From: a virus
Virus record (IMG/VR): IMGVR_UViG_3300030329_004691
Span: 1 to 38,527 of that record
DNA: 38,527 nucleotides
Reading direction: 5' to 3' (one strand)
Positions within the stretch are counted from its first letter, which is position 1. Each line of letters opens with the position of its first letter. The position numbers were made by a program, and so were the translations under genes. The notes under the pieces were generated by a model. The model worked only from the letters and a program-made list of their open reading frames with translations, had not been told where the DNA came from and ran no database searches. Shown piece by piece: positions 6,540 through 14,304 of this stretch.

Positions 6540-6976
6540 CGTGGTCTTTCTCCAGGTAGGGATTCGCCTCCGGTATCCGGTGGCAGCTGCGCCTTGACGT
6601 CGATCCATTCCCAGGTGCCGTCTGGATGATCGTGTCGGATCTTGCCTTTATTCCATCCGCCTCCGTTTCGTCCGAGGCGTTCAGCACCGACGTGCTTGCC
6701 TTTATGCCATGGGATATTTCCAGGCTTGAATCCAATCTTGGGATGTTCTTGGTTCCTCTTCACCAGCAAACATCCGCATGATCTGGTTTTATGTTTCCCG
6801 GTGGCATTGTAAACAGCAGCGTATCGAATTCTTTTTTCATTCCCGCATCGGCATCGGAATAAATACCAGGTGCATGAATACGGCTCGGTTTGGTGCTCTA
6901 ACCAGCGGATCGGCGTCAACCAGCTGTCCGGTGCCTCAACTCCTAACCTGGCTTTACTTTTCAAGAAGAGTCCCAT
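6536..6976 (-). CDS. HNH/NUMOD-type zinc-binding protein
   Basis: This 146-residue protein has a C-x-C (FRCRCGNEK) followed about 22 residues later by SCGCLL. The pair forms the four-cysteine element found in phage HNH or AP2-type DNA-binding proteins. The middle contains repeated G-x-x-P-W-H-K-G-K and GGGWNKGK segments resembling nuclease-associated modular (NUMOD) DNA-binding repeats. A clear HNH catalytic pair is not visible, so it may be a DNA-binding relic of a homing endonuclease or a regulator. It overlaps the preceding gene by 23 bases and has no strong ribosome site, so it may depend on coupling. Confidence 0.55.
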   Translation of the reverse strand: MGLFLKSKARLGVEAPDSWLTPIRWLEHQTEPYSCTWYLFRCRCGNEKRIRYAAVYNATGKHKTRSCGCLLVKRNQEHPKIGFKPGNIPWHKGKHVGAERLGRNGGGWNKGKIRHDHPDGTWEWIDVKAQLPPDTGGESLPGERPR

Positions 6977-7208
6977 CTAAGTTTTTTAAGCTTTCTAGTT
7001 TGTTGTCTATGTTTGCGAGCTCGGTCGCCACCGTCATCAGAATCGCATTCTGCTGCATGACCAGCTCCGCCAGGTTGAACTGCTTTCCCTCCTTCGGAAG
7101 GATCGGGTGACCTTTGCCGTCGGAGGTTGCAGTGAGGGATGCAGCGATCGCCTCGAGGGATTTCATATTTGCTTCTTTGCGTTTATTTTCTGGTGAATAT
7201 TTTGTCAT
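6954..7208 (-). CDS. Small coiled-coil protein of unknown function
   Basis: This 84-residue protein has a charged N-terminus and a C-terminal helix with heptad-like hydrophobics (FNLAELVMQQNAILMTVATE then NIDNKLESLKN). AAAGGAA lies 5 bases before the ATG, so the start is well supported. It is the first gene after the larger pentamer array and is followed, with overlap, by the HNH-like gene. No family is recognised. Confidence 0.75.
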   Translation of the reverse strand: MTKYSPENKRKEANMKSLEAIAASLTATSDGKGHPILPKEGKQFNLAELVMQQNAILMTVATELANIDNKLESLKNLDGTLLEK

Positions 7209-7230: not shown

Positions 7231-7662
7231 CTTGCTGTGCCATGAATCGCTCCGCTATGTCTCGACGTGACGCGTCGGGCTGAGCTTCGCATCGCTAGGT
7301 CACGCTTCGCCATGCCTCGGCATGCCCCGATTTAAAATCCGTTTGTTCCTTGCCCTGGCAAGCATGGCCCCGGCTTGATTTGTCAGGCTGCGCCCGGTCA
7401 TGCATCGCCTTGTATCGCCTCGACCCGCTGCACCATGCAGAGCCTCGTCATGCTGCGGGTTAAAATCTTTTGTTTCCTTGCTTAGTCGTGTCTCGCCAGG
7501 CCCAGGCCCGATCCGCTTTGACAGGCCCGGCCACGTTATAAATCTTTTGTTCCTTGCCTTGTCTTGCATTGCCCGGTCAGGCATAGTCTCGCCTCGTCAA
7601 GCTCTGCGTCGCATGGCTTTGTCAAGTCGTGCAGAGACCCGCTTCGCCAAGCCCATCCTGGC
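7231..7662 (-). repeat. GC-rich phased pentamer arrays (four blocks)
   Basis: This 430-base stretch has no convincing gene. Read on the minus strand it is made of five-base units whose last two bases are almost always GC or AC (NNNGC/NNNAC), for example gaggc-gatac-aaggc. Four blocks are separated by an AT-rich separator of the form CAAGGAACAAA, a C or A, then GATTTTAA, at about 7331-7350, 7461-7478 and 7537-7553. The last block runs into the ribosome site region of the 6954-7208 gene. The five-base phase excludes a codon structure, and the frames that happen to be open here are shadows. Confidence 0.85.
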
Positions 7663-8148
7663 CTAGCCTGGGCTCGGTAACTTTTTCCTTTCATCCCGGA
7701 GCAGAACCCGGAGGCCTGCCACTCGGGCCATCGTATCTGCATGGTCCTGACGTTCCCGGACGTCGAGCTTCTCCATGGGAGTGTTCACCAATCGGGAGAA
7801 CGCCTTTCTCATACTTTTCTGGAGTTTGGTATGCAGTGTTTTTTCAGCATATTCTGCTTGCTGCTGAGGCTGCAGGATCCGGTATCCAATACCCCACTCT
7901 GAGACCAAACATATCTTTTCTTCCTGGAGGAGATATTCCTTCAGCTGTTCCATGTTCGCCATGTATGCGAGCTGGATCGAATCGAACTTATGTTTCGGCA
8001 TATCATCGGGAGGCTGCTCCAATCCCAGGGCTTCAAAAAACCATGAGTGTTCGATGATATCGTCAGGAGTGAATTCCTCCTCGAGGAACCGTTTGGCTGC
8101 TTCTCTCCATGCCGGGAAGAGCTGCATCATTTCATCAGTTTCATTCAT
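7663..8148 (-). CDS. Conserved-looking early phage protein, unknown function
   Basis: This 161-residue, mainly helical acidic protein begins MNETDEMMQLFPAW. Its central stretch MPKHKFDSIQLAYMANMEQL and its C-terminus (RERQDHADTMARVAGLRVLL) are amphipathic, while the C-terminal tip is basic. The start is supported by AAGGAAACA immediately upstream, which is also the terminal element of a pentamer array. It is flanked by pentamer arrays on both sides, between the RAMP-like gene and the small coiled-coil gene. I do not recognise its family. Confidence 0.75.
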   Translation of the reverse strand: MNETDEMMQLFPAWREAAKRFLEEEFTPDDIIEHSWFFEALGLEQPPDDMPKHKFDSIQLAYMANMEQLKEYLLQEEKICLVSEWGIGYRILQPQQQAEYAEKTLHTKLQKSMRKAFSRLVNTPMEKLDVRERQDHADTMARVAGLRVLLRDERKKLPSPG

Positions 8149-8154
8149 TGTTTC

Positions 8155-8341
8155 CTTGCTTAGTCTTGTCTTGCACTGTCAAGCAAAGCCCGGACGAGCT
8201 CCGTCGAGCCCGGCGTGGCATCGCTGAGTTTAATTCGTTTATTCCTTGCTTAGTCGAGTCTTGCCGTCGCTTGGCCCAGACGAGCTCTGCGCGGCCCAGC
8301 AAGGCATGGCGGCGCATCGCCTTGCATTACCGTGCCATGGG
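8155..8341 (-). repeat. GC-rich phased pentamer arrays (two blocks)
   Basis: Two blocks of minus-strand NNNGC/NNNAC pentamers (for example catgc-cttgc-tgggc and cacgc-cgggc-tcgac) lie between the stop at 8342 and the start at 8148. A separator CAAGGAATAAACGAATTAAA at about 8229-8248 divides them, like those in the larger array. The second block ends in TAAGC-AAGGA, which provides the ribosome-binding site of the next gene. Confidence 0.85.
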
Positions 8342-8911
8342 TCAATCTTTAACAATTTCAAATCGTCCATATCTTGGACGGTAATCGCAGATGCCGACGA
8401 AATCCCCAGCGGTTTTGATGTAGCCGAGAATATCATTCATGTTGAGCAGCTCATCGGATGCGAGGAGCGTGAATGAGATTGCCCACTCATGGAAAATCGG
8501 GCGGCATCGCATGATTCTTTTCTTCTGGAGAACGACCGATCTCATGTCTGAAAATTTATCACGCTGCTTCCACAATCCTTCGATATCCCGAGGACCGGAA
8601 TATTGCAGTTTGATTTTCTGTTCCATAACCTGGAGACCTCGCTGGATGTTTCGTCCCATGCGGACGAATTTGGCACCGTCTCGAATCATCGCCTCGACGT
8701 TTTCACCAGGGATGACCGGACCCTCTTCATTCATGTAGAGCTGACCCTCCCACTCGAGGCGGGCGATCTGCTCGAGATCTTCGTCGGTTTTCTTTCTTTT
8801 GCCGGTTAGTTCCTTGATCTGTTTTGATAACGGATCGAGTGGATTCGCGCATCGTTCGCTCGACATGAGCAGGGGTGTTACCCCTTTAATTTTTATTTCT
8901 TCTTTAATCAT
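8342..8911 (-). CDS. Phage protein, possible RAMP/Cas7-like fold
   Basis: This 189-residue protein has a beta-strand N-terminus (IKIKGVTPLLMSS), the segment ANPLDPLSKQIKELTGKRKK, a loop VIPGENVEAMIRDGAK and a C-terminal DYRPRYGRFEIV. I recognise this as a widespread phage protein type seen near recombination genes. The strand-helix arrangement and closing glycine-rich strand are reminiscent of RRM/RAMP nucleic-acid-binding proteins, but that is inference from pattern and not a verified homology. It lies downstream of SSB and upstream of a pentamer array. The start ATG has a weak AGAAG upstream. Confidence 0.6.
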   Translation of the reverse strand: MIKEEIKIKGVTPLLMSSERCANPLDPLSKQIKELTGKRKKTDEDLEQIARLEWEGQLYMNEEGPVIPGENVEAMIRDGAKFVRMGRNIQRGLQVMEQKIKLQYSGPRDIEGLWKQRDKFSDMRSVVLQKKRIMRCRPIFHEWAISFTLLASDELLNMNDILGYIKTAGDFVGICDYRPRYGRFEIVKD

Positions 8912-14086: not shown

Positions 14087-14174
14087 AAGAAACCAGAGGT
14101 TGCTTGAAATGGGTTCGCGTTTGGGTTCGCGTTTGGCCTTGGGTTCGCGTTGGTTCGCGTTTTTTAAAAAGCTA

Positions 14175-14199
14175 AACCGTTGCAAACACTGGGGTTGTG
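14175..14199 (+). repeat. Direct repeat, copy 1, beside tRNA-like core
   Basis: This 25-base sequence recurs at 14241-14265 with two mismatches; the shared invariant part is aaacactggggttgtg. The two copies are 66 bases apart and bracket the tRNA-like fragment. Confidence 0.9.
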
Positions 14200-14225
14200 G
14201 TCGGAGCGACTGGATTCGAACCTGC
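14198..14225 (-). other. tRNA 3'-end-like fragment (T arm, acceptor, CCA)
   Basis: Read on the minus strand this has GCAGG, loop TTCGAAT, CCAGT (T arm with one A-A mismatch), acceptor strand CGCTCCG, discriminator A and CCA. The rest of a tRNA (anticodon and D arms) is not recognisable upstream, so it is a fragment and not a functional tRNA. Integrating phages carry such 3' ends to restore the host tRNA gene. The amino acid identity cannot be decided. Confidence 0.75.
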
Positions 14226-14240
14226 CGCCCATAATCTGCG

Positions 14241-14265
14241 AACCTTTGAAAACACTGGGGTTGTG
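14241..14265 (+). repeat. Direct repeat, copy 2, beside tRNA-like core
   Basis: This is the partner of 14175-14199. It also contributes GGGGTTG to the stem of the terminator-like hairpin at 14257-14282. Confidence 0.9.
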
Positions 14266-14282
14266 CAATGCAACCCCCTTTT
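14257..14282 (+). terminator. Possible terminator of the rightward block
   Basis: GGGGTTG, a 7-base loop and CAACCCC make a perfect 7-bp stem followed by CTTTT on the plus strand. It lies at the meeting point of the two convergent transcription directions. The T run is short, so strength is uncertain. Confidence 0.5.
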
Positions 14283-14304
14283 GGGTTCGCGTTGGGTTCG
14301 CGTT

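What the first reader, a model, noticed from the sequence alone, without database searches (positions are those of the whole stretch)
7231..7662. Phased pentanucleotide arrays in an intergenic region
On the minus strand the sequence reads as runs of five-base units ending GC or AC (gaggc-gatac-aaggc-gatgc-atgac and so on), kept in phase for 60-110 bases per block. Five-base phase is not a codon pattern and the units vary in their first three bases, so this is not a simple tandem repeat. A selected spacing of GC (half a helical turn apart) suggests a structural, protein-binding or recombination role. The arrays sit just downstream of the ERF/SSB module.
Basis: seen in the sequence. Interest (0 to 1): 0.78.

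Follow-up and report, generated by a model that had tools for sequence, protein, structure and literature searches.

The report
Phage RNA-guide array (VIPR system)
The odd five-base pattern is the guide-RNA array of a VIPR system, a recently described Cas7-like, RNA-guided DNA-silencing system that phages appear to use against rival phages; here it sits in an uncultivated temperate phage with an unusually loose repeat motif.

Summary
On the minus strand there are six blocks, four as reported and two missed at 8340-8155. A C recurs every fifth base (95% of 115 units), and no shuffle matches any block. The blocks flank two genes. ORF 8342-8911 is a homologue of Vipr (PDB 36pp, phage SUSP1 Vipr, E 2e-31); its AlphaFold model (pLDDT 96) best matches Csm3/Cas7 RAMP subunits. 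Protein family and arrays go together: of 66 array loci found by DNA pattern, 53 carry a Vipr, and all 16 testable Vipr loci found by protein carry pentad arrays, from Mycobacterium to E. coli phages. A 2026 preprint (PMC13142463) names this VIPR: vrRNAs of GGY/NN repeats bound by Vipr, whose NN pairs read double-stranded DNA with a one-base skip and silence competing phages. So the window is a new member of a known kind. Unusual here: the GGY motif is loosened to C plus G at one or both preceding bases, and between close relatives the other unit positions change 4-5 times faster than the C. I found no natural target. The helical-spacing and recombination readings are not supported.

The parts
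8342..8911 (-). vipr gene (189 aa, phrog_4652): Cas7-like RAMP that should bind the array RNA
   Evidence: phmmer to PDB 36pp_D 'SUSP1 Vipr protein' E 2e-31, profile E 2e-42; AlphaFold2 pLDDT 96; Foldseek/VIA best matches Csm3/Cas7, Z 10.5
7663..8148 (-). probable vap (accessory) gene, 161 aa, phrog_5926; winged-helix-like N-terminal part plus long helices
   Evidence: second commonest protein family in array loci, 23 of the fetched loci; AlphaFold2 pLDDT 90; only weak matches, several to winged-helix DNA-binding proteins
8245..8340 (-). array block 1 (about 18 units; one single-base phase slip near 8265)
8155..8228 (-). array block 2 (15 units), ends 6 bases before the ATG of the vap gene
7553..7677 (-). 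array block 3 (25 units), begins inside the last codons of vap
7477..7536 (-). array block 4 (12 units)
7349..7453 (-). array block 5 (21 units)
7231..7330 (-). array block 6 (20 units), ends 22 bases before the ATG of ORF 6954-7208
8229..8244 (-). 3' tail after block 1 (GAATAAACGAATTAAA)
   Evidence: tails listed for window and four relatives
7537..7552 (-). 3' tail after block 3 (GAACAAAAGATTTATA)
7454..7476 (-). 3' tail after block 4 (GAAACAAAAGATTTTAAC...)
7331..7348 (-). 3' tail after block 5 (GAACAAACGGATTTTAAA)

Best explanation
The blocks are vrRNA genes of a VIPR (Viral Interference Programmable Repeat) system. They are transcribed with the vipr-vap operon. Each block with its tail gives a guide RNA of tandem pentads; one small Cas7-like Vipr subunit grips the fixed bases of each pentad, and the variable dinucleotides are offered, two at a time with one target base skipped, to double-stranded DNA. 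The bound complex blocks transcription of genes of competing phages, prophages or satellites. SHOWN HERE: pentad arrays, tails, a Vipr homologue with a RAMP fold, two-way association of arrays and Vipr, and conservation of the C against fast change of the other positions. INFERRED from homology to the published system: expression, RNA loading, the one-base skip and silencing. UNKNOWN: the targets of these six guides.
For: Phase and block statistics. The same pentad arrays occur in 60 viral loci and several bacterial contigs found by pattern. Arrays start a median of about 6 nt after the stop codon of a co-directional gene and end before the next start codon. Protein clustering picks out phrog_4652 (45 loci) and phrog_5926 (23), everything else 7 or fewer. 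Of 66 array loci found by pattern, 13 lack a detectable Vipr, several of them short fragments. All 16 testable Vipr loci found by protein have period-5 arrays beside the gene. PDB match 36pp 'SUSP1 Vipr protein'. RAMP fold. Close relatives (Vipr 87-96% identical): substitutions C 5.8%, N1 27%, N2 30%, flanking positions 24-28%. Published mechanism (PMC13142463).
Against: The published GGY anchor is loose here: only 27 of 103 C-containing junctions in the window are GGC. Blocks of 20-25 units exceed the published 9-16. Gapped searches of viral contigs with 8-9 units of five blocks gave no target that extends beyond the seed, so the one-base skip is untested for this phage. The tail is A-rich and no structure was shown for it. 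The accessory-protein identity rests on position and family, not on a named match.
Confidence: 0.94

Rival explanations
1. A DNA-level array: phased sites for a DNA-binding protein (centromere or iteron type), five bases being half a helical turn.
For: Regular five-base phase at DNA level; repeated blocks beside replication and recombination genes.
Against: Arrays follow the sense strand of the flanking genes and fill the gap from stop codon to next start; phase breaks at every tail; the associated protein has the fold of RNA-binding Cas7/Csm3 and a homologue reported to co-purify with such RNAs (PMC13142463).
Confidence: 0.03
2. Recombination linkers: degenerate repeats that let the Erf annealing protein exchange genes between phages.
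For: Erf and SSB genes lie directly upstream; whole blocks are gained and lost between close relatives.
Against: Only 6 array loci shared the Erf-like family in the clustering, against 45 with Vipr; the phase is conserved at a single C per unit while the rest changes, which homology-based annealing does not need.
Confidence: 0.02
3. Same system, but the guides act mainly on the phage's own genes (self-regulation) rather than on competitors.
For: No foreign target found.
Against: The published clades mostly target satellites and prophages (PMC13142463); hypervariable NN positions suit changing foreign targets. In the small set of held loci no skip length of 0-3 stood out.
Confidence: 0.1

Closest known systems
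VIPR of Escherichia phage SUSP1 (type II; Vipr in PDB 36pp; PMC13142463)
   Same: Vipr homologue over 182 residues; vipr with a small vap; pentad arrays with a 3' tail in the intergenic stretches around them; phage-encoded.
   Different: Anchor here is C plus G at one or both preceding bases, SUSP1 is GGY; the A-rich tail shows no obvious resemblance to the published pseudoknot tail (not tested); blocks reach 25 units; operon beside erf-ssb.
Class 1 CRISPR RAMPs (Csm3/Cas7)
   Same: Fold (Z 10.5, 154 residues aligned, rmsd 3.8); guide RNA held at a fixed spacing (inferred here).
   Different: No cas genes found beside it, no long identical repeats with spacers; the fixed base recurs every fifth position within the guide itself.
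Felixounavirus direct repeats annotated DR_4 in phage wV8
   Same: Same module: Vipr homologue gp95 and pentad arrays on both sides.
   Different: GGT/NN anchor; annotated only as a direct repeat.

Membership tests
VIPR | Vipr protein (single small RAMP homologue) | tested here: met
   36pp_D E 2e-31; profile E 2e-42; RAMP fold
VIPR | Minimal phage-borne locus, vipr plus vap, with long intergenic stretches | tested here: met
   ORFs 8342-8911 and 7663-8148, six blocks between and after them; window is a virus record; vap assigned by family and position only
VIPR | Tandem pentads alternating fixed anchor and variable dinucleotide (GGY/NN or a related consensus) | tested here: met
   C 95%, all six blocks beyond every shuffle; anchor is a related consensus
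VIPR | Strict GGY anchor as in the SUSP1 and P. fulva clades | tested here: inconclusive
   G only about 60% at each of two positions; the paper allows related consensus motifs (its fig. S17), which I could not read
VIPR | Invariable 3' tail after the repeat tract | tested here: met
   GCAAGGAA followed by an A-rich tail, mostly like CAAAAGATTTTAA, after the blocks in window and four relatives; where a gene follows, the tail runs into its start; tail structure not tested
VIPR | vrRNAs expressed and bound by Vipr | not testable with these tools
   needs small-RNA sequencing and pull-down
VIPR | Target reading with one-base skip | tested here: inconclusive
   no extended target found for five blocks; no skip length stands out in held loci
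CRISPR-Cas | Long identical repeats separated by spacers, with cas genes | tested here: not met
   no such repeat array in the region; neighbours are erf, ssb and other phage genes

The most novel reading that the evidence does not exclude
The window and its relatives L084-L087 use a loosened VIPR code: each pentad needs only the C and a G at one or both of the two bases before it, so a third base per unit may be free for target reading, a step toward the nearly contiguous guides of CRISPR. Evidence: junctions with no G are 5 of 103 against 15.8 expected in the window (p 8e-6) and 24 of 528 against 62 over five related genomes, while N1/N2 show no such link; the two anchor G positions change as fast as the N positions.
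Probability: 0.3. Interest if true: 0.75.

Novelty: new member of a known kind. Interest (0 to 1): 0.55.

Why it matters
It independently supports a months-old preprint: starting from raw sequence and no annotation, the arrays led to the same Cas7-like protein and to the same system in many phages. The loose anchor, the GGA-type anchor in L089/L090 and the tRNA-like spacers in actinophages give natural variants with which to learn how Vipr reads its guide and how far the code can bend toward CRISPR.

Tried and rejected
Rfam: nothing in the window region or in 14 array loci. BLASTN of the window region in named phages: no match. G-quadruplex, ribosome-ladder, TRAP-like-ring and R-loop ideas were considered while only the repeat was known; the near-invariance of C rather than G and the link to a RAMP protein argue against them. 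Target decoding: six seeds of 8-9 units from five blocks gave 0-13 loci each; matches beyond the seed were near chance (6-9 of 24 bases for block 6), so none is claimed. All-against-all target search of 352 blocks in held loci: no skip length stood out; that database was too small. Reading blocks as codons gave plausible peptides in both directions, so it was dropped. A RAMP-motif scan of the held DNA of the 13 array contigs without Vipr found no convincing candidate.

Full report
WHAT WAS CHECKED. The minus strand of 7231-7662 does carry five-base phased blocks. GC dinucleotides recur at multiples of five 16-23 times against about 6 expected, and the highest period-5 power of the whole window is here. 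In all six blocks a C falls at the same place of nearly every unit, and no dinucleotide shuffle reached the observed count. Blocks have 12-25 units, end in GCAAGGAA, continue into an A-rich tail, mostly like CAAAAGATTTTAA, and restart in another phase.

HOW WIDESPREAD. A DNA pattern of seven units plus GCAAGGAA, with far less than one match expected by chance (my estimate), gave 60 viral loci, and a stricter one gave bacterial contigs including Geothrix, Hyphomicrobium and Desulfovibrio, along with several plain GCAAG microsatellites that I set aside. Over some 55 loci the unit is G-C-N-N-G with 92, 97 and 96% at the fixed places and free NN; block length peaks at 11-12 units. With a simple gene caller, 97 of 110 array clusters with an upstream gene have it on the same strand, and 94 of 109 for the downstream gene; arrays begin a median of about 6 nt after the upstream stop codon. 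This points to RNA, not to DNA geometry.

THE PARTNER PROTEIN. Clustering the proteins of these loci gave one dominant family, that of window ORF 8342-8911 (phrog_4652, function unknown), and a second, ORF 7663-8148 (phrog_5926); everything else occurred in 7 loci or fewer. Searching named phages with the first protein gave Felix O1-like phages, Pseudomonas LESphi2 and Medea1, Gordonia Trine, Vibrio phiHSIC and Mycobacterium LittleE. Each one inspected has pentad arrays beside the gene, with a GGT anchor in wV8 and GGC in Trine and LittleE. Of ten viral loci found by the protein, nine have period-5 arrays; the tenth ends at the gene, so it cannot be tested. L089/L090 use a (G/T)GA-like anchor. 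Of 66 array loci found by pattern, 13 have no detectable Vipr even in the whole contig, several of them fragments of 4-8 kb.

IDENTIFICATION. The protein family profile matches PDB 36pp, 'SUSP1 Vipr protein', E 2e-42; the window protein alone E 2e-31 over residues 5-186. The AlphaFold2 model (pLDDT 96) aligns best with Csm3 and other Cas7 RAMPs, Z 10.5. The literature search then found PMC13142463: VIPR systems, Vipr plus vrRNAs of 9-16 YNNGG repeats with a 3' tail, NN positions pairing with double-stranded DNA with a one-base skip, silencing of competing phages, seven types. The window fits in protein, locus layout, pentads and tail. The second protein (AlphaFold2 pLDDT 90) has only weak structural matches, several of them to winged-helix DNA-binding proteins, in keeping with the predicted DNA-binding vap of type II.

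EVOLUTION. Relatives L084-L087 (Vipr 87-96% identical) have gained and lost whole blocks. In alignable blocks the C changes in 5.8% of comparisons and the other four positions in 24-30%. The anchor is loose in all five genomes: G about 60-75% at each of the two positions before C. Junctions with neither G are scarcer than independence predicts (5 against 15.8 in the window; 24 against 62 in the five), so one G seems enough. The five genomes are related, so the pooled p-value overstates the evidence; the window alone gives 8e-6.

TARGETS. Six gapped seeds (8-9 units, one-base skip) from five of the six blocks were scanned against 2.9 million viral contigs. Hits were few and did not extend beyond the seed. 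No target is claimed, and the skip rule is not verified for this phage.

CONTEXT. The record is a 38.5-kb uncultivated tailed phage with integrase, repressor-like HTH gene, terminase and P22-like portal, hence probably temperate.

VERDICT. New member of a known kind, with a loosened motif that may be a variant. Shown: arrays, protein, association, selection. Inferred: expression, guide loading and silencing.

Noticed in passing
L081 3250-3425 and 4706-4890; L078 4075-4116, 4196-4237, 4305-4346: In actinophages LittleE and Trine the vrRNA blocks are separated by about 40-nt tRNA-like elements (acceptor-like stem, 12-nt linker in most copies, T-arm with TTCGANT loop). T-stem: all 42 cells paired against 71% in shuffles, 5 of 6 pairs changed on both sides; no Rfam match. 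The VIPR preprint's main text names hammerhead ribozymes as array spacers and does not mention tRNA.
   Followed up: partly
L089 and L090, from about 3070: Vipr loci with a (G/T)GA/NN-like anchor instead of GGY/NN.
   Followed up: partly
L081 3120-5020 compared with L115: LittleE carries the VIPR module on the strand opposite to the tail operon; the same place in relative Baka lacks it, so it is optional cargo.
   Followed up: partly
L003, L010, L015, L017, L022, L030, L045, L056, L058 and others: 13 contigs with arrays have no detectable Vipr; fragments, diverged Vipr or orphan guides.
   Followed up: partly
L004, L008, L014, L016, L055: Blocks follow each other with only GAACNN between them, shifting phase by two bases; possibly the staggered arrays mentioned in the preprint.
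   Followed up: no
14110-14304: Repeated TGGGTTCGCGTT-like units near the window's repressor-side genes.
   Followed up: no
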